DNA from: Microcystis aeruginosa Ma_SC_T_19800800_S464
GTDB lineage: Bacteria; Cyanobacteriota; Cyanobacteriia; Cyanobacteriales; Microcystaceae
Reading direction: 5' to 3'
Assembly (NCBI GenBank): GCA_007095785.1
Contig: SFBL01000080.1
Span: 1-39,134, forward strand
DNA: 39,134 nucleotides
Shown here: piece after piece, positions 9,009 to 32,641 of the stretch
Layout of the letters: every line of letters begins with the position of its first letter
Position numbering within the stretch: the first letter of the stretch is position 1
Position numbers and translations under genes: made by a program
Notes under the pieces: model-generated
Seen by the model: only the letters and a program-made list of their open reading frames with translations
Databases searched by the model: none
What the model was told of the DNA's origin: nothing

Positions 9009-9881
9009 ATGAAAACTGATAAAATCTTTTATACCTTATTTCAAGTCTTTCCCGAACTTCTCTTTCAACTGCTAGGAGAATCTCCCAATCTGGCGCAAAA
9101 TTATCAATTTAAATCAGTCGAAATCAAAGAATTAGCTTTCCGACTCGATGGGGTATTTATTCCCGATGCAGACCACCCGGATTATCCGCTTTACTTTGTC
9201 GAAGTTCAATTTCAAAAAGACGAGGATTTTTATTGGCGATTTATGACTCAGATCTTCCTCTATCTCAAGCAGTATAAGCCGGAACGCGCCTGCTGTCCCG
9301 TGATTCTGTGGGGAAAGCGCCGCTTGGACATTGGGTTTCCCATCGCTTACCAAAATTTGCTAAACTTAGAGCGGATACAACGAATATATCTCGATGAAAT
9401 CGAGGCTGAATCTCCTCCCTCTCTGGGGATAAGTATCCTCCAGTTTATCGTCATCAGTGGGAAAAAAGCACCCGAACAGGTTCAATCCTTGATTGAGCAA
9501 ACCCGCCAACAGATTATTGACCCTAACACTCAACGAAATGTTATCGAGTTAATCGAGAAGATTATTATCTACAAATTTCCGCAGAAAAGCCGCCAGGAGT
9601 TAGAAGCTATGTTTAATCTCACGGAATGGAAACAAACCAAGTTTTATCAAGAAGCTAAGGAAGAGGGGAAACTTGAAGGAAAACTTGAAGGGAAACTTGA
9701 AGGAAAACTTGAAGGGAAACTTGAAGGGAAACTTGAAGGAAAACTTGAAGGAAAACTTGAAGGGAAATTAGAAACAATTCCTCTTCTGGTTAGGTTGGGA
9801 CTTAATGAAGAACAAATTGCACGGGAATTAAATCTAAGAGTTGAGATTGTTCATCAATTTATTACCAATCAGAACAATTAA
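9009..9881 (+). CDS. Rpn/DUF2887-type PD-(D/E)XK nuclease family protein with GKLE repeat
   Basis: Resembles the cyanobacterial DUF2887/Rpn group (recombination-promoting nuclease or putative transposase, PD-(D/E)XK fold). The N-terminus MKTDKIFYTLFQVFPELLFQLLG, the FRLDGVFIPD acidic motif and the YFVEVQFQ E-x-Q motif fit the nuclease core; the second domain (about 150-215) is helical. Nine tandem GKLE tetrapeptides near residues 220-255 are encoded by a 12-bp DNA repeat, followed by a short helix-turn-helix-like tail (LNEEQIARELNLRVEIV). AAGGAG lies only two bases before ATG 9009, so the upstream TTG 8988 remains possible. Its role in this strain is unknown. Confidence 0.85.
   Translation: MKTDKIFYTLFQVFPELLFQLLGESPNLAQNYQFKSVEIKELAFRLDGVFIPDADHPDYPLYFVEVQFQKDEDFYWRFMTQIFLYLKQYKPERACCPVILWGKRRLDIGFPIAYQNLLNLERIQRIYLDEIEAESPPSLGISILQFIVISGKKAPEQVQSLIEQTRQQIIDPNTQRNVIELIEKIIIYKFPQKSRQELEAMFNLTEWKQTKFYQEAKEEGKLEGKLEGKLEGKLEGKLEGKLEGKLEGKLEGKLETIPLLVRLGLNEEQIARELNLRVEIVHQFITNQNN
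9666..9773 (+). repeat. Nine 12-bp repeats encoding GKLE
   Basis: Nine in-frame 12-bp units of the form GGRAAACTTGAA (last unit TTA for CTT). Units differ only at synonymous positions. Copy-number change would keep the reading frame and alter only the length of a charged helix. Confidence 0.92.
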
Positions 9882-9982
9882 AACTTTTAAGAGATTGCTT
9901 CGGGGGGTGAAGAAGCAGGGGAGAGGGGGAGCAGGGGAGTACAGGTTGTTGCTCTCATAGTAGGTTGATTCATGAATCAACC

Positions 9983-10095
9983 GGCGTTGCTGATTTGAGA
10001 TATGAATCTTCTTTTGTGGGATTTTTAAAACCTAGACCCAAACTAACTTTTGGATGGGTACAAGGTTGTCATTCATACCTTGATTCAGCAGCGCC
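9983..10095. mobile_element. MITE-like element with imperfect 25-bp terminal inverted repeats
   Basis: Ends GGCGTTGCTGATTTGAGATA (left, 9983) and the reverse complement of ATTCATACCTTGATTCAGCA...(right, ending 10095) match at 20 of 25 positions. The 113-bp body has no credible gene. A nested GATTCATGAATC palindrome lies just outside the left end. It sits 95 bases upstream of the cyanobactin precursor gene. Assignment as a MITE rests only on structure. Confidence 0.6.
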
Positions 10096-10127
10096 CTCTT
10101 TCTTAACAAAAATTGACCTAGAAACTG

Positions 10128-10156
10128 TTGACTTGGATTGGCAGTTTTGCCATACC
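10128..10156 (+). promoter_or_regulatory. Weak candidate promoter for the precursor gene
   Basis: TTGACT (10128-10133) is followed after 17 bases by CATACC, which matches only half of TATAAT. It is the best placed -35/-10 pair I see between the MITE and the precursor start. Position supports it more than sequence does. Confidence 0.3.
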
Positions 10157-10189
10157 GTGAAAAACCAACTGATTGGAGGATTTTACCCC

Positions 10190-10339
10190 ATGAAAACCAA
10201 GAAACTGACACCCCGTAACTCTGCTCCTGTCCAACGGGAAAATGCCGCTACCGTCTCTCGCGATGGCAATGCGATCGCAGCGATCAAGAGCGCAGTTGCT
10301 TTTTATGCGTTTCCTTTTGCGGGAGACGACGCAGAGTAA
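10190..10339 (+). CDS. patE: Cyanobactin precursor peptide (PatE/AcyE/PirE type)
   Basis: A 49-residue RiPP precursor. The leader begins MKTKKLTPRNSAPVQRE, basic and with the LTP...APVQR pattern of anacyclamide/piricyclamide-type precursors as I recall them. The C-terminus is FAGDDAE, the tail recognised and removed by PatG-type macrocyclases in that subgroup. The residue before the tail is Pro42, the usual last core residue when no heterocycle is made. The core therefore ends ...AVAFYAFP; its first residue cannot be read from sequence (5-9 residues is plausible). GGAGGA at about 10175-10180 is correctly placed before ATG 10190. The frame is open further upstream to 9965, but that part crosses the MITE and has no good start. 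No Cys, Ser or Thr lies in the likely core apart from Ser34 at its edge, consistent with the missing heterocyclase. A prenyltransferase gene lies 1.7 kb downstream. Confidence 0.88.
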   Translation: MKTKKLTPRNSAPVQRENAATVSRDGNAIAAIKSAVAFYAFPFAGDDAE

Positions 10340-10498
10340 TGCTCCCGATTCGAGCATCGAACTTCAAATCATGTCAAAAGTCTTTTTCTGCTTGCCAGGG
10401 TGCGCGGTTTGCCCCAACGAATTGACGTACAACCCTTGTTAATTCAGGGCTTTCTGTTACCTGGCACGCGGGAGAAGCAGGGGAGTAGGGGAGAGATC
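10340..10498. other. Gap between precursor and toxin genes
   Basis: No gene recognised. The first bases (GTAATGCTCCCGAT, 10336-10349) and the last (CGCGGGAGAAGCAGGGGAG, about 10468-10486) recur together in compact form at 11218-11265. A 23-codon open frame at 10371 with four Cys (MSKVFFCLPGC...) has no ribosome-binding site and is not called. Confidence 0.6.
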
Positions 10499-10924
10499 TT
10501 AAGGCAAAAGTGTGAAAGCAGAGCAGTGTGCTGGTTGGTAGATGCTAAAGTCGCGATGATCTAGGGTTAGAATGGTGTCGAGTCTGTAGCGTTCGGCGAT
10601 CGCCATTACCGAAGCGTCCACAAAATCGATGCGGCTATCTTGATACTGACGGAGAATAGCAGCAGTTCGGGCAATATCTTCAGGGATTAAGCCAATAACT
10701 TTAAAGCGGCTAATCGGTAGTGACTCCAGGAATTTGAGCAACTGAACCGTACCAGCATCTCGATCAATGAGATAGGCTACTTCGGCCAGTACTGTTTGTG
10801 GTAGATAGATGTGGCGTTGTTGAGCATATACGGCTTTTACGGCGGTATGCTGTTTATCTCTTTGGTTGGCAAGCGCAACGACAAATCCGGTATCAGTAAC
10901 GGTGGTCATGGCTTGGTTGTCCAT
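10499..10924 (-). CDS. vapC: PIN-domain toxin, VapC type
   Basis: A PIN-domain ribonuclease-like toxin. The acidic residues expected for metal binding are visible: the N-terminal TDTGFVVAL Asp, a Glu in VLAEVAYL, and the paired Asp in DFVDASVMAIAE and TLDHRDF. The length (141 residues; about 136 if ATG at codon 6, MTTVTDTGF, is used) is normal for VapC. Its start overlaps the end of the upstream small gene by 19 bases, the usual antitoxin-toxin layout. It lies opposite in strand to the cyanobactin genes and separates precursor from prenyltransferase. Confidence 0.88.
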   Translation of the reverse strand: MDNQAMTTVTDTGFVVALANQRDKQHTAVKAVYAQQRHIYLPQTVLAEVAYLIDRDAGTVQLLKFLESLPISRFKVIGLIPEDIARTAAILRQYQDSRIDFVDASVMAIAERYRLDTILTLDHRDFSIYQPAHCSAFTLLP

Positions 10925-11172
10925 CCCGATTTGGGTCGTATTTCTGCTGCGAGGATGTCTTCAGCGTTGGTAGCTAGATCCGGTGAACCGGAGTAGAGTC
11001 CAACAATGGGGTCTTCATTGACGCTTAAGGGTTCTTGTTGTTGAAGCTGAATGTATTGCCGAATTGCTTCATCCAACAAGGCCTCTAAGGGTTTATTTTG
11101 CTGGTCGGCAAGGGTTAGCAGTTTGGCTAGGGTATCTGGGTTAGGTTTCCAGTTAAGAGTAATGTCTAGCAT
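10906..11172 (-). CDS. Probable antitoxin partner of the PIN toxin
   Basis: An 88-residue protein immediately upstream of and overlapping the VapC-type gene. The N-terminal half (LDITLNWKPNPDTLAKLLTLADQQNKPLEALLDEAIRQYIQ) looks like a short strand followed by helices, as in ribbon-helix-helix antitoxins; the C-terminal half is polar and could wrap the toxin. I infer the role from overlap and layout, not from a certain family match. Confidence 0.75.
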   Translation of the reverse strand: MLDITLNWKPNPDTLAKLLTLADQQNKPLEALLDEAIRQYIQLQQQEPLSVNEDPIVGLYSGSPDLATNAEDILAAEIRPKSGWTTKP

Positions 11173-11195: not shown

Positions 11196-11265
11196 ATTGG
11201 AGGATTTTCCACGCGAAGTAATGCTCCCGATCCTAGCACGAACTCGCGGGAGAAGCAGGGGAGCA
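11196..11265 (+). other. Possible relic of a second precursor locus
   Basis: TTGGAGGATTTT (about 11198-11209) equals the ribosome-binding stretch of the precursor gene at 10173-10184. A few bases later AGTAATGCTCCCGAT and CGCGGGAGAAGCAGGGGAG equal the sequences just after the precursor gene. What is missing is the coding part. This could be a precursor copy whose coding region was deleted, or simply shared repeats. Confidence 0.4.
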
Positions 11266-11329
11266 GGGGAGAGGTTGGGTTTTTCCCCACTTGCCTTTTT
11301 CCTTCGCTCAAGAGTGCTAGAAGACTTGG

Positions 11330-12008: not shown

Positions 12009-12905
12009 ATGATAGTTGCCGAGATTCAAAAAAACTCCCTCAAAGAGCAAAGAATACAATTTATCCGTAATCATCAACAAGCTTTTGATGTTGAGCCGAT
12101 TTATCCTCTGCGGCTATTTGAAGATTTTGTTATGGAAGTTGAAGGCGATTGTAATATTGAAGCCTCCTGTAAGATAGAATTAGATAAACTCATTGCCTCA
12201 CGGTTTATGCTCTTTTTTAAAGATCAGTCCCAAGAATGGCAAAAATGTCTAGCTCAATCTTTAGCTTTTTTTCAGCAAGTTGAAAACCGAGTTGGTGTTC
12301 AATTAGATTATTCCTTATTACAGAAATTTTTAGGACATAACTTTGACTTTAGCAAACTAGAAGTTCTCAGTGCTGGACTTGATTTAAGAACTAATTTAGC
12401 TGATTCTAGTTTAAAAATACACATTAGAATTAAAGATTATCCTGAAAAGCTACAAACTGCTTTCGTTTTAAGTGATGGTGCTGCTGACAGTGATTATTTA
12501 AGTGAATTTGTTGAGTTAATTGGTTTTGATTTTTACTTTAATGGTAAAAGTGAAATCGAAATTTATGCCGAACTTCAAGAAGATGATTTTTTCAGACCAG
12601 AAACCATCAATTTAGTCTGGCGACATTTTCCTGATTCAGTCTTAAACCCTCTCCAAGGATCAAGTTTGTTTTTCACGGGTTTATCAAAAGCAAATAATAA
12701 CGCAGTGCTTTACTATCATCTCAAAGATCGTCAAGGTTTAACCAATTATTTTAAGATTAATGATACAGCCCAAAGAGTTCACAGCTTTTATCAACATCAA
12801 GATATTTTACCTAATATGTGGGTAGGTACTACTCAAAAAGAATTAGAAAAAACGAGAATTGAGAATATTCGGCTTTATTATTACAAATTCTTTAAGATGG
12901 AGTAA
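12009..12905 (+). CDS. patF: Cyanobactin peptide prenyltransferase (PatF/PagF/LynF family)
   Basis: Family members transfer dimethylallyl or geranyl groups from the diphosphate to Tyr, Ser, Thr, Trp or peptide termini of cyanobactins, using an ABBA barrel. The 298-residue product has the usual length and is recognisably similar across its whole length to PagF/TruF/PatF-type enzymes, with landmarks LKEQRIQFIRNHQQAFDVEP, LSAGLDLRTNLADSSLKIH, LIGFDFYFNGKSEIEIYAE, SSLFFTGLSKANN and RVHSFYQHQDILP. Some family members (original PatF) appear inactive, so activity is not certain. It lies downstream of the precursor gene on the same strand, now separated by a toxin-antitoxin pair and a transposase relic. 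The single core Tyr of the precursor is a plausible target. Confidence 0.94.
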   Translation: MIVAEIQKNSLKEQRIQFIRNHQQAFDVEPIYPLRLFEDFVMEVEGDCNIEASCKIELDKLIASRFMLFFKDQSQEWQKCLAQSLAFFQQVENRVGVQLDYSLLQKFLGHNFDFSKLEVLSAGLDLRTNLADSSLKIHIRIKDYPEKLQTAFVLSDGAADSDYLSEFVELIGFDFYFNGKSEIEIYAELQEDDFFRPETINLVWRHFPDSVLNPLQGSSLFFTGLSKANNNAVLYYHLKDRQGLTNYFKINDTAQRVHSFYQHQDILPNMWVGTTQKELEKTRIENIRLYYYKFFKME

Positions 12906-16709: not shown

Positions 16710-16919
16710 ATGAGACTTCCCAAACAGTCTGCTCCCGTCAAACGTCCCCATTTTATTCATCCCCACGAATGTGTTGATATTGTTCATGGCGATGGAGAAG
16801 ATTTAGTATCTATCTTGGTTAAGTTAGTTCATGGGGCTAACTACAACGATCCGGCACAATTTCAATACCCTCACTATGGCTATCTAAAAATGTCATCCTT
16901 TGGCGGTTTTCGTTATTAG
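16710..16919 (+). CDS. patB: PatB-like cyanobactin cluster small protein
   Basis: A 69-residue protein 40 bases after the PatA-type gene. Its position (second in A-B-C order) and its look (MRLPKQSAPVKRP, ECVDIVHGDGEDLVSILVKLVHGANYNDP) fit the PatB/AcyB/McaB group of small conserved proteins of unknown, apparently non-essential function. The N-terminus shares SAPV-x-R with the precursor leader. The C-terminal tail is Tyr/Phe/Gly rich (YGYLKMSSFGGFRY). I considered it as a second precursor but it lacks the FAGDDAE/AYDGE-type tail. No clear Shine-Dalgarno is present. Confidence 0.72.
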   Translation: MRLPKQSAPVKRPHFIHPHECVDIVHGDGEDLVSILVKLVHGANYNDPAQFQYPHYGYLKMSSFGGFRY

Positions 16920-16965: not shown

Positions 16966-17187
16966 ATGGCTGACTCTAAAAGTTCTAAGCAATCAGAAAC
17001 CAATCCGAATGTTGAGCAACCAGAAACAAAAAAATCCAACATTCAACCACAGGAAACAACTCAACCTAAAGCTAAATATATTCCCGCAACTGGGTTAGAA
17101 GATTACGGACGCTGGAAATTGATGTTCCAAGACCGCAAGGCGAATCCCAATGATCCGCCGTTTCGTCGGGGTCAAATTTGGTGTTAA
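16966..17187 (+). CDS. patC: PatC-like cyanobactin cluster small protein
   Basis: A 73-residue protein 46 bases after the PatB-like gene with AAGGA upstream of the ATG. The first 40 residues are a disordered, Gln/Glu/Thr/Lys-rich stretch; the conserved part is the C-terminal IPATGLEDYGRWKL...NDPPFRRGQIW. Position and this C-terminal block fit the PatC/TenC/TruC group, whose function is unknown. It ends in Cys. It converges with a Uma2 gene only 10 bases away. Confidence 0.72.
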   Translation: MADSKSSKQSETNPNVEQPETKKSNIQPQETTQPKAKYIPATGLEDYGRWKLMFQDRKANPNDPPFRRGQIWC

Positions 17188-18056: not shown

Positions 18057-21056
18057 ATGCCTGATCTCAATGCTATCCCCGGAATGACCGCTCTTCGCTC
18101 CCATACCAAAGGCGATCCACGCATCAAAATCGCCGTTCTTGATGGACCAGTTGACTTAGATCGCGCCTGTTTTCAAGGAGCAAATATTACCCGTATTAAT
18201 CCTTATTGGGCCGAAGAATTTCCCATCGATCCCCAACACTTACAAGCCTTTTTAGATGTAGAAAAAAGTGGCAAAAGTGATGAAGAAAAAGAGGAAATGT
18301 TTAAGGAGGCGATTCCAGATGAAAATATCCGCCAGAGCTTGCATTTGCGCTTCCATGCTAACCATATTATCAGCACCATTTGTGGACAGCCAGATTCACC
18401 GGTAGAAGGGATTGCTCCTAACGCAACGGTGATAAATATTCCCATTGCTTATGGGAATGACGATTTTATCAATCCTCTCAATCTTTCTCGTGCGATTAGC
18501 ACCGCTATTGAACAGGGAGTTAATATTATCCATTGTGCCGCTTGTCACCCAACTCAAAGCGGATTAGCTCACGAATTTATTGATAAAGCGATTCGTCAAG
18601 CACAGGATAATAATATACTCGTTATTGCTCCTGGTGGTAATGATAAAGGAGAGTGTTGGTGCGTTCCTGCGGTGTTAGAAAATGTCCTGACCGTAGGAGC
18701 GATGAAAGATACAGGAGAGCCATTTAAATTCAGTAATTTTGGCGGTAAATATGCGACTCAAGGGATTCTTGCTCCCGGAGAGAATATTCTAGGATCTCAA
18801 CCCGGAACTGATGACCCTATCCGCAAAAAAGGGACTAGCTGCGCTGCTCCAATTGTGACAGGAACGGCCGCTTTATTAATGAGTTTACAATTAGAACAGG
18901 GTTTATCTCCTGATGCAGAAGCAGTAAGAGCAGCCTTGACTAATAGTGCCATTCCCTGCGATCCTAAGGAAGTAGAAGAACCAGAACGCTGTTTACTCGG
19001 AAAAATTAACATTGCTGGAGCTTATGAATTATTAACTGGTCAAAAATTGCTAGAAAATCAATCTTCTGAAACTACATTTGTGTTAACAGGTTCTCCTTCT
19101 GTTCCTCAAAAAACTCTATCCACAACTTATACTGCTAATTTTCCTAGTTTGCTATTTGAAAAAAGAATATCTTTAGCAATTACTAGCTATTTAGGTAAAT
19201 TAATTACCCTTAGTCCCGAAAATAATCAACTCAAGATCCAGTGTAAAACTTTTGAACGTCCGATGGGGTTAGCAGTAAGTGAAAATCAAATTGCCATAGG
19301 AGATGGCTATCAAATTTGGCAGTTACAAAAAAGCACTTCATTAAACGGAAATGATTATTATTTACCAAAAACTATTCACGTTACAGGTGGTATTGATATT
19401 CATGAGATCGAATGGATTGGAAACGAATTGTGGTTTATCAATACAAAATTTTCTTGTTTATCTACCCTTGATGACAACTACAGTTTCGCTTGTCGTTGGA
19501 AACCCCCTTTCATTAAAAAATTAGACGCTCAAGACCGATGCCATTTAAACGGACTGGCAGTCAAAGATAATCGGCCTAAGTATGTTACCATGTTAGCCCA
19601 ATCCCATACCCCTAACGGCTGGAGAGAACAGATGGAAGATGGGGGAGTATTAATGGACATTGAGACTAATGAAGTTGTGGTGCAAGGGTTAAGTATGCCT
19701 CATTCTCCCCGTTGGTATCAGGATAAGTTATGGTTGCTTGAATCTGCAAAAAATAGGATAGGGTATGTTGATTTCAAACATAATCAATTGATTCCTTTAG
19801 CTAATCTTTCTGGATATGCTAGAGGATTAGTTTTTTGTGAAAATTTAGCATTTGTCGGTTTATCTCAAGCACGACATGGAGAATCGAACTCTCAACCAAA
19901 TAGCAAGAATTTATGTGGCATTGCTGTCATTGATCTTCAAACAGGTGAAACGATTGCTTCTTTGTGTTTTGAATCTGGAGTAGATGAAATTTTTGGTGTT
20001 TCTGTATTAGAAGGATCTGGCTTTCCTATAATTCCTGAATGGAATGAGGAAATGTTAGCTAACACTTTTATTTTGCCACAAACTTTTGCTTCTCCTTTAG
20101 TTGTATCTGCTTCAACTAAAGTTGCCCCTTCAGTCATCACCAATACTTCACAATCTCATAGTGAAATAGCTATTTCAGCTAATAATATTTCTGGTGCAGT
20201 TACTCCTAGTCAACGCTCAAACCTCGTTTATGTGTTAGGAACTTTAGGTTATGATTTCGGAACAGAAGCGCGTCGGGATACTTTTAAACAGTTAATGCCA
20301 ACCATCACGATCGATAATATTGAATTACCATCCAATCCCTACGATGCACGACAAATGGTAGATTATTTAGAAAGTAATCTATCAGAAACTAAGTCTTTAA
20401 TTTGGACAGTGAATTTAGAACTAACTCCCATCTATGCAATTAAACCAGTGGGAGCTTTTGCCGCTGAGATTTATCAAGTCATGCAATATATGTTAGCGGG
20501 TCAAATATTGCCAGAAGCTGACGAAGATTATGTGGAAAGGGTGAGTATTCCGGGCATTCTTACCGATGAAACTGTGAAACTATTTTCTGGTCAAATTATT
20601 CCTGTCCTCAAAGTCAATAGTCCCCGGGGAATGTATGGCTGGAAAGTTAATACTTTGATTGAATCAGCCATAGAAACTGTTAGTGCAGAACATGAAATCG
20701 CCGATGAATCTAGGATGCGGCGTTCTCTGACAAGTTTCTTAAATCGTGTTTATTATGACTTACGCAATGTCGGACAAATCGCCCGGGATCGCGCTTTAAA
20801 TTTTGCCGCTACTAACGCTTTTCAAGCAGTACAAACCTTCTCCCAAGCAGTAGCAATAGGAATGGAATTACACAGTATTGAAGTAGAAAAAAGTCCCTTT
20901 TGTCGCTATGGTAGTGAATGTTGGGATGTGAAATTAAAATTCTTTGATCCCGAAAATGGTCTGCGCGCTAAACGAGTTTTTCGCTTTACCATTGATGTCA
21001 GCGATCGCACCCCTGTAACTTTAGGTGAAGTGCGTTCTTGGGCTGTTTCTAAATAG
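18057..21056 (+). CDS. patG: PatG-type cyanobactin macrocyclase with an extra TIGR03032-like domain
   Basis: In cyanobactin pathways PatG removes the C-terminal tail and joins the core ends. The 999-residue protein has an S8 domain (about 1-330) with Asp29, His100, Asn195 and Ser261 (KGTSCAAP). Between Asp29 and His100 lies an insertion of about 35-40 residues, mostly helical and acidic (FLDVEK...SDEEKEEMFKEA), in the place of the capping helix-loop-helix that marks PatG macrocyclases and is absent from the PatA-type partner. Residues about 365-675 resemble the TIGR03032/DUF4915 family (FERPMGLAVSENQIAIGDGYQIWQL, GGIDIHEIEWIGNELWFINT, HSPRWYQDKLWLLES). The C-terminal modules shared with PatA begin at about 722 (LVYVLGTLGYDFGTEARRD) and continue to the end. 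The N-terminal FMN oxidase of PatG is absent, as in clusters without azoles. No ribosome-binding site is evident. Confidence 0.9.
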   Translation: MPDLNAIPGMTALRSHTKGDPRIKIAVLDGPVDLDRACFQGANITRINPYWAEEFPIDPQHLQAFLDVEKSGKSDEEKEEMFKEAIPDENIRQSLHLRFHANHIISTICGQPDSPVEGIAPNATVINIPIAYGNDDFINPLNLSRAISTAIEQGVNIIHCAACHPTQSGLAHEFIDKAIRQAQDNNILVIAPGGNDKGECWCVPAVLENVLTVGAMKDTGEPFKFSNFGGKYATQGILAPGENILGSQPGTDDPIRKKGTSCAAPIVTGTAALLMSLQLEQGLSPDAEAVRAALTNSAIPCDPKEVEEPERCLLGKINIAGAYELLTGQKLLENQSSETTFVLTGSPSVPQKTLSTTYTANFPSLLFEKRISLAITSYLGKLITLSPENNQLKIQCKTFERPMGLAVSENQIAIGDGYQIWQLQKSTSLNGNDYYLPKTIHVTGGIDIHEIEWIGNELWFINTKFSCLSTLDDNYSFACRWKPPFIKKLDAQDRCHLNGLAVKDNRPKYVTMLAQSHTPNGWREQMEDGGVLMDIETNEVVVQGLSMPHSPRWYQDKLWLLESAKNRIGYVDFKHNQLIPLANLSGYARGLVFCENLAFVGLSQARHGESNSQPNSKNLCGIAVIDLQTGETIASLCFESGVDEIFGVSVLEGSGFPIIPEWNEEMLANTFILPQTFASPLVVSASTKVAPSVITNTSQSHSEIAISANNISGAVTPSQRSNLVYVLGTLGYDFGTEARRDTFKQLMPTITIDNIELPSNPYDARQMVDYLESNLSETKSLIWTVNLELTPIYAIKPVGAFAAEIYQVMQYMLAGQILPEADEDYVERVSIPGILTDETVKLFSGQIIPVLKVNSPRGMYGWKVNTLIESAIETVSAEHEIADESRMRRSLTSFLNRVYYDLRNVGQIARDRALNFAATNAFQAVQTFSQAVAIGMELHSIEVEKSPFCRYGSECWDVKLKFFDPENGLRAKRVFRFTIDVSDRTPVTLGEVRSWAVSK

Positions 21057-32224: not shown

Positions 32225-32641
32225 ATGAGCATTACAGTACGGGTTATTACACCCGATCGCATTGTCTGGGATAACGTGGCCGAAGAAGTAATCCTACCCA
32301 GTTCCACGGGACAATTAGGTATTCTTAGCGGTCACGCTCCTTTATTAACTGCCCTGAATATTGGCGTAATGCGAATTCGACCGGGGAAAGACTGGGAAAA
32401 TATCGCGGTTTTGGGCGGTTTTGCCGAAGTCGAAAATAATGAGATCAAAGTCCTCGTTAATGGGGCGGAATTAGGCTCAAAAATCGATAAGGAAAAAGCT
32501 CGCGCCGAATACGAACAGGCCCAAACCCGTCTCGATGAAGTCAGTAAAGGGGATGACCGTCGCAAAACTATCCAAGCGCAACAATCATGGCGCAAAGCTC
32601 GCGCTAGATACCAGGCCGCTGGCGGTTTAGTATCGGTTTAA
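32225..32641 (+). CDS. atpC: F1F0 ATP synthase epsilon subunit
   Basis: Central-stalk subunit that couples rotation to catalysis and inhibits ATP hydrolysis (atpE in plastid nomenclature). The N-terminal beta-sandwich is recognised by [25 protein letters not shown] and [13 protein letters not shown]; the two C-terminal inhibitory helices follow ([38 protein letters not shown]). Length 138 is normal. It closes the two-gene operon; a terminator hairpin follows 30 bases after the stop. Confidence 0.97.

What the first reader, a model, noticed from the sequence alone, without database searches (positions are those of the whole stretch)
10190..10339. A 49-aa cyanobactin precursor gene, easy to miss because of its size
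Sequence shows a small gene with a good ribosome-binding site (GGAGGA), a basic leader with SAPVQR, and the tail FAGDDAE after a Pro. Known anacyclamide/piricyclamide-type precursors use this tail. The core (ending AVAFYAFP) appears hydrophobic and rich in Ala/Phe. I know of no described cyanobactin with this core, but cannot search.
Basis: partly seen in the sequence, partly recalled or inferred. Interest (0 to 1): 0.88.

Follow-up and report, generated by a model that had tools for sequence, protein, structure and literature searches.

The report
Piricyclamide precursor gene in Microcystis
A bloom-forming cyanobacterium carries a small gene, with its processing enzymes nearby, for a ring-shaped peptide of a known family, with a ring sequence seen in nothing we searched; the ring-closing enzyme beside it carries an unexpected extra domain.

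Summary
Window 10190-10339 (+) encodes a 49-residue cyanobactin precursor of the anacyclamide/piricyclamide family (TIGR04446, 82 bits, cut-off 35), the only one over cut-off in its genome. It heads a Microcystis-type pir cluster: PirF, PirA, PirB, PirC, PirG, as published for M. aeruginosa PCC 7005 (PMC3428304). Predicted product: cyclo(KSAVAFYAFP), [M+H]+ 1082.567, probably O-prenylated on Tyr39 (1150.630), because PirF has Phe in the donor pocket like C5-using PagF, not Gly like geranylating PirF. This is a new member of a known kind; the core is in no paper of the held library. More unusual is PirG: a complete DUF4915/TIGR03032 domain sits in its protease-to-PatG_D linker. The same linker holds a kinase in two other genomes and a methyltransferase in a third; 23 of 27 measured linkers are plain. 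The searches made found no paper on this. No transcript or product was tested.

The parts
10128..10156 (+). promoter-like pair: TTGACT (10128-10133), 17 nt, CATACC (10151-10156)
   Evidence: TTGAC stands in 16 of 19 pirE upstream rows printed (13 of 15 after removing duplicate rows). The generic scan reported no promoter-like site in 9880-10600; the second hexamer matches the consensus at only 3 of 6.
10175..10180 (+). ribosome-binding site GGAGGA
   Evidence: sequence; TTGGAGG stands before the ATG in 8 of 19 rows printed, duplicates included
10190..10339 (+). pirE-type cyanobactin precursor, 49 aa
   Evidence: TIGR04446 82 bits, cut-off 35
10190..10285 (+). leader, residues 1-32, ending GNAIAAI
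   Evidence: comparison with precursors bearing published cores
10286..10315 (+). predicted core KSAVAFYAFP, residues 33-42
   Evidence: same spacing as 8 of 8 published cores found in fetched precursors
10316..10336 (+). C-terminal tail FAGDDAE
   Evidence: FAGDDAE ends 43 of the 49 precursors collected; the search pattern itself asked for a tail of this kind. Removal by PirG is inferred from PatG.
11197..11244 (+). probable scar of a second precursor gene: ribosome-binding region next to a pirE 3' end, coding part missing
   Evidence: blastn 35 bp, 85.7%, E 3.7e-4 between 11211-11244 and 10329-10363, with TTGGAGGATTTTCCAC at its left end
12009..12905 (+). PirF prenyltransferase, 298 aa, Phe at position 222
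   Evidence: TIGR04445 400.6 bits, cut-off 140; PDB relatives PagF 5tty and PirF 6pgm; pocket residue
14717..16669 (+). PirA protease, 650 aa
   Evidence: TIGR03895 927.1 bits, cut-off 421; D/H/S motifs present
16710..16919 (+). PirB, 69 aa
   Evidence: TIGR04220 131.1 bits, cut-off 55
16966..17187 (+). PirC, 73 aa
   Evidence: TIGR04447 52.4 bits, cut-off 30
18057..21056 (+). PirG macrocyclase-protease, 999 aa
   Evidence: TIGR03895 839.2 bits; best solved match 4h6x, the PatG protease; D/H/S motifs
19137..20030 (+). DUF4915/TIGR03032 domain in the PirG linker (aa 361-658)
   Evidence: DUF4915 361.5 bits, cut-off 35; absent from PirG of G388, G357 and G237

Best explanation
The gene is pirE of a piricyclamide (cyanobactin) cluster in a Microcystis-type genome. 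[quoted passage not shown] PirG cuts before FAGDDAE and joins Pro42 to Lys33, giving a ten-residue ring. PirF then probably adds a C5 prenyl group to the oxygen of Tyr39, the only Tyr in the core. Shown here: the gene, its family, the cluster, D/H/S motifs in both proteases, the leader-core spacing and the pocket residue. Inferred from known enzymes: each cleavage, the ring closure and the prenylation. Open: whether the DUF4915 domain inside PirG adds a further change.
For: TIGR04446 82 bits against 35. Genes F, A, B, C and G over curated cut-offs. Gene order F, ORFs of 192 and 227 aa, A, B, C, G as in the published PCC 7005 cluster, with a 154-aa DUF29 ORF where PCC 7005 has one of 465 aa. 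All 8 published cores found in fetched precursors start at the same spacing and end in P before FAGDDA; two of the 8 were detected by LC-MS by the authors. PirF has Phe at 222 as PagF, where PCC 7005 PirF has Gly; a single small-to-large change in the pocket sets C10 or C5 use (PMC10946513, passages; PMC12076493, passages). A related genome with the core published as C5-prenylated, ILGEGEGWNYNP, also has Phe there.
Against: No transcript or mass was tested. The second promoter hexamer matches only 3 of 6 and the scan called no promoter. The gene stands about 1.7 kb from pirF, with a PIN-domain ORF and a transposase-like ORF between. Another precursor here has probably been lost, and several published pir genes are broken, so this cluster may be silent. 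The insert in PirG might impair cyclization. Six of the eight published cores used are themselves predictions by the authors, so the spacing rests firmly on two. The position of the pocket residue (222) is recalled; the three papers opened do not print it, though a solved PagF chain with Ala at that position exists (6pgn).
Confidence: 0.85

Rival explanations
1. The cluster is a decaying remnant: pirE is intact, but no product is made, because of insertions, a lost sister precursor and a macrocyclase with a foreign domain.
For: A probable scar of a second pirE at 11197-11244; other ORFs between pirE and pirF; broken relatives: G386 PirG lies in two frames with a TAG in one piece, G389 PirF holds 4 stops; NIES-843 was published as inactive (PMC3428304).
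Against: The window's E, F, A, B, C and G match their family models over their length and A and G keep D/H/S motifs; PirG is 95.6% and 95.8% identical in DNA to G388 before and after the linker; the insert keeps 56 of 64 family-conserved columns.
Confidence: 0.2
2. The product is the geranylated (C10) or unmodified ring, not the C5-prenylated one.
For: Piricyclamides occur unmodified, prenylated and geranylated (PMC3428304); the window PirF is 86-100% identical to geranylating PirF in 30-residue windows starting at 1-121 and 97-100% in those starting at 241-256.
Against: The middle segment with the donor pocket is nearer to PagF, with Phe at 222.
Confidence: 0.3
3. The core begins at another residue, e.g. 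Ser34, or Ile32.
For: PirA specificity was not tested here; six of the eight published cores used are predictions.
Against: 8 of 8 fit one spacing, among them the two detected by LC-MS.
Confidence: 0.1

Closest known systems
Piricyclamide (pir) clusters of Microcystis aeruginosa PCC 7005 and NIES-843 (PMC3428304)
   Same: precursor family, tail, genes F, A, B, C, G, no heterocyclase seen in the cluster, ORFs of 192 and 227 aa between F and A, PirB 69 aa and PirC 73 aa
   Different: core KSAVAFYAFP; one precursor instead of up to four; none between pirC and pirG; PirG 999 aa with a DUF4915 domain against 689 aa; Phe instead of Gly in the PirF donor pocket
Anacyclamide (acy) and prenylagaramide (pag) clusters
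   Same: one family model covers anacyclamide and piricyclamide precursors; PirF here matches PagF over its whole length
   Different: leader and core; for example the Nostoc locus L045 has leaders MTKKN... and MSKKN...
Patellamide PatG
   Same: protease/macrocyclase, PatG_D and PatG_C domains
   Different: PatG has an oxidase domain (PMC4663559, passages; its N-terminal place is recalled); PirG here has none and carries DUF4915 in the linker

Membership tests
anacyclamide/piricyclamide precursor (TIGR04446) | score over the curated cut-off over the full model | tested here: met
   82 bits, cut-off 35, model 1-51
anacyclamide/piricyclamide precursor (TIGR04446) | core ends in Pro followed by FAGDDAE; conserved leader, hypervariable core | tested here: met
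   49 distinct complete precursors compared by eye, 15 of the Microcystis type split into leader, core and tail
cyanobactin cluster, piricyclamide type | A and G proteases, B and C genes beside the precursor | tested here: met
   TIGR03895 twice, TIGR04220, TIGR04447, all over cut-off
cyanobactin cluster, piricyclamide type | F prenyltransferase | tested here: met
   TIGR04445 400.6 bits, cut-off 140
cyanobactin cluster, piricyclamide type | no PatD heterocyclase and no oxidase in G | tested here: inconclusive
   No oxidase domain reported in PirG and no further large ORF between F and G, but neither the rest of the window nor the genome was searched for PatD.
cyanobactin cluster, piricyclamide type | cyclic peptide product | not testable with these tools
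   needs LC-MS
C5 (DMAPP) cyanobactin prenyltransferase, PagF type | large residue at the donor pocket | tested here: met
   Phe at 222 as in PagF 5tty; PirF 6pgm has Gly. That 222 is the switch position is recalled.
PatG macrocyclase | subtilase with D/H/S motifs, PatG_D and PatG_C | tested here: met
   aligns with PatG protease 4h6x from residue 6 to 330, including the stretch before the catalytic His; that this stretch forms the macrocyclase cap is recalled

The most novel reading that the evidence does not exclude
The linker of cyanobactin macrocyclases is a socket for exchangeable tailoring or regulatory modules (DUF4915 here, protein kinase in G312 and G153, methyltransferase in G451), and DUF4915 is an undescribed tailoring enzyme that modifies the KSAVAFYAFP ring, so the product carries a change not yet known in cyanobactins.
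Probability: 0.22. Interest if true: 0.72.

Novelty: new member of a known kind. Interest (0 to 1): 0.42.

Why it matters
It adds one predicted ring peptide, with exact masses to look for. PirF differs from its published counterpart mainly in the segment that holds the donor pocket, which ties a natural sequence difference to prenyl or geranyl use. And a macrocyclase with an exchangeable middle module would make the role of an unstudied domain family (DUF4915) testable by mass spectrometry on a small, gene-encoded product.

Tried and rejected
Chance ORF: rejected by family score. Longer 124-aa ORF from a TTG at 9965: mechanical extension; the family model starts at the ATG at 10190. Further precursors in the genome: none over the cut-off. 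Relatives of the precursor in viral contigs, plasmid and phage records: none; of the DUF4915 domain in viral contigs: none. Structure of the DUF4915 domain: a single-sequence model of mean pLDDT 38.9, discarded, no fold search made. Solved relatives of DUF4915 by profile: nothing significant, best E 0.15. Reported masses in PMC10147050: none of the three m/z strings and no piricyclamide in the main text.

Full report
What is there. NCBI's curated model for anacyclamide/piricyclamide precursors (TIGR04446) matches its whole length with 82 bits against a cut-off of 35. In its own genome, 4.77 Mb in 240 contigs, it is the only match over the cut-off.

Where it is. Of 12 loci found in named genomes, 5 are Microcystis, among them the best four. 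8 of 12 genomes of the genus have a precursor over the cut-off, as do 16 of 386 genomes sampled from the phylum. One genome of the genus, G386, has precursors from contig position 32581, and PMC3428304 gives 32581-52235 for the pir cluster of M. aeruginosa NIES-843, so G386 is very likely that strain (inference).

The cluster. Downstream lie PirF (12009), a 154-aa DUF29 protein, two ORFs of 192 and 227 aa, PirA (14717), PirB (16710), PirC (16966), a minus-strand ORF of 263 aa and PirG (18057); the Pir proteins exceed their curated cut-offs. PMC3428304 (three of five parts of its text read) lists for PCC 7005 PirF, ORFs of 465, 192 and 227 aa, PirA 645 aa, PirB 69 aa, PirC 73 aa, PirE4, an ORF of 271 aa and PirG 689 aa. 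I found no precursor between PirC and PirG in the window. Between pirE and pirF lie a PIN-domain ORF with a short neighbour, a transposase-like ORF (my reading of the sequence, not tested), and, at about 11197-11244, a probable scar: the ribosome-binding region of a pirE gene next to the 3' end of one, the coding part gone (the 35-bp match has E 3.7e-4).

The core. I took 31 core sequences from the two tables of PMC3428304 and looked for them in 49 distinct complete precursors from the fetched loci (the pattern misses unusual tails). Seven were found there, and an eighth, TFCDLATKQCYP, in precursors ending FAGDDAV. In all eight the core starts after a seven-residue stretch: GNAIAxx|, RNAIAPM|, GNAIIQL|, GNVITPA| (ANMITPA| in a second copy) or GTGLTPL|. 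ILGEGEGWNYNP and TFCDLATKQCYP were detected by LC-MS by the authors; the other six are their predictions, so the spacing rests firmly on two. The same spacing gives KSAVAFYAFP in the window. Its calculated [M+H]+ as a ring is 1082.5669, with C5H8 1150.6295, with C10H16 1218.6921. No paper of the held library contains the ten letters; but a search for FAGDDAE found none either, although this tail is shared by published precursors, so such word searches are weak.

Prenylation. The window PirF is related to PagF (5tty) and PirF (6pgm). In 30-residue windows it is 86-100% identical to PirF for windows starting at 1 to 121, 37-57% from 136 to 211, 77% at 226, and 97-100% at 241 and 256; to PagF it is 67-93% throughout. 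So the segment with the donor pocket is of another type than in PCC 7005. The residue at 222 is Phe, as in PagF; PirF 6pgm has Gly. That one small-to-large change sets geranyl or prenyl use is stated in PMC10946513 and PMC12076493 (passages). Neither prints the position; I recall it from the 2018 paper they cite, which I did not read, and 6pgn, a PagF chain with Ala there, fits. Among the Microcystis copies with this column, Phe is in the window, G388, the broken copy of G389/L036 and two partial copies of G357 (one also in L039); Gly is in G386; two copies of other genera have Leu and Ser. G357 and L039 also hold the core ILGEGEGWNYNP, published as C5-prenylated in another strain. The DNA comparison with G386 shows the same drop in the middle. 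Exchange by recombination is likely, not shown: no breakpoint test was run.

PirG. The 999-aa PirG has subtilase, PatG_D and PatG_C domains and, between them, a DUF4915/TIGR03032 domain of 361.5 bits. PirG of G388, G357 and G237 has 696-698 aa and a plain linker. Against G388 the window's gene is 95.6% identical in DNA before the linker and 95.8% after it; the insert has 36% G+C against 43% and 40% in the flanking parts measured. The insert keeps 56 of 64 columns that are at least 95% conserved in 29 other family members. Its best matches outside the window, at 44-49% identity, lie in proteins of other make-up (those printed); 51 of 386 sampled genomes have a relative of the domain, and I did not check whether any other one lies in a PatG protein.

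In G312 the same linker holds a protein kinase domain (PF00069, 97.5 bits), in G153, of another family, a kinase as well (99.3 bits; the two linkers are 46% identical), and in G451 a methyltransferase (PF08241, 68.5 bits). I read 31 sequences. The linker was measured in 27: 4 hold a folded module, 23 are plain (53-149 residues). Four of the 31 were not measured, one of which (G657) looks like the A type. The 8 were chosen because their frames were long, from a listing that was cut, so the share of modules in nature is not known. Against a clean story: no PirF was found in the G312 genome, and I saw no PirA-sized frame in the stretch fetched around its PirG; the G451 gene begins at a contig end and its GTSxAAP motif was not matched by my pattern.

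Literature on the modules. No paper of the held library names DUF4915, TIGR03032 or PF16261. Searches that combined cyanobactin and PatG with kinase, methyltransferase domain, von Willebrand, inserted domain or linker listed nothing whose title or printed abstract start describes such a fusion; I did not open those papers. The 2015 review PMC4663559 has no occurrence of kinase in its main text. Subscription papers are mostly not held.

Verdict. The precursor is a new member of a known kind, well supported. Production is untested. The inserted domain in the macrocyclase is the part that a specialist might not expect, and its function is open.

Noticed in passing
window 19137-20030: Complete DUF4915/TIGR03032 domain inside the PirG linker, absent from PirG of G388, G357 and G237.
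   Followed up: partly
L106 12457-15339 (G312); L142 838-3924 (G153): PatG-type macrocyclases with a protein kinase domain in the same linker; the two linkers are 46% identical.
   Followed up: partly
L184 (G451): PatG-type protein with a methyltransferase domain in the same linker; the frame begins at the contig end.
   Followed up: no
L108 6138-7157 (-), L110 12921-13907 (+): PirC-type ends behind a long N-terminal part that reads like a von Willebrand A domain; Pfam support is below cut-off in one and absent in the other.
   Followed up: partly
window 12009-12905: PirF looks mosaic: ends nearer to geranylating PirF, middle nearer to PagF.
   Followed up: partly
window 11197-11244: Probable scar of a lost second precursor gene.
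   Followed up: partly
window 10499-11172 (-): PIN-domain ORF (PF01850, 50.5 bits) with a short upstream neighbour, between pirE and pirF; a toxin-antitoxin pair is only a guess, as the neighbour matches no model over its cut-off.
   Followed up: no
window 9660-9770: DUF2887 protein with a run of LEGK-type repeats near its C-terminus.
   Followed up: no
window 9911-9940, 10470-10495, 11249-11273: Similar G-rich short runs (GAAGCAGGGGAG-like) between genes.
   Followed up: no
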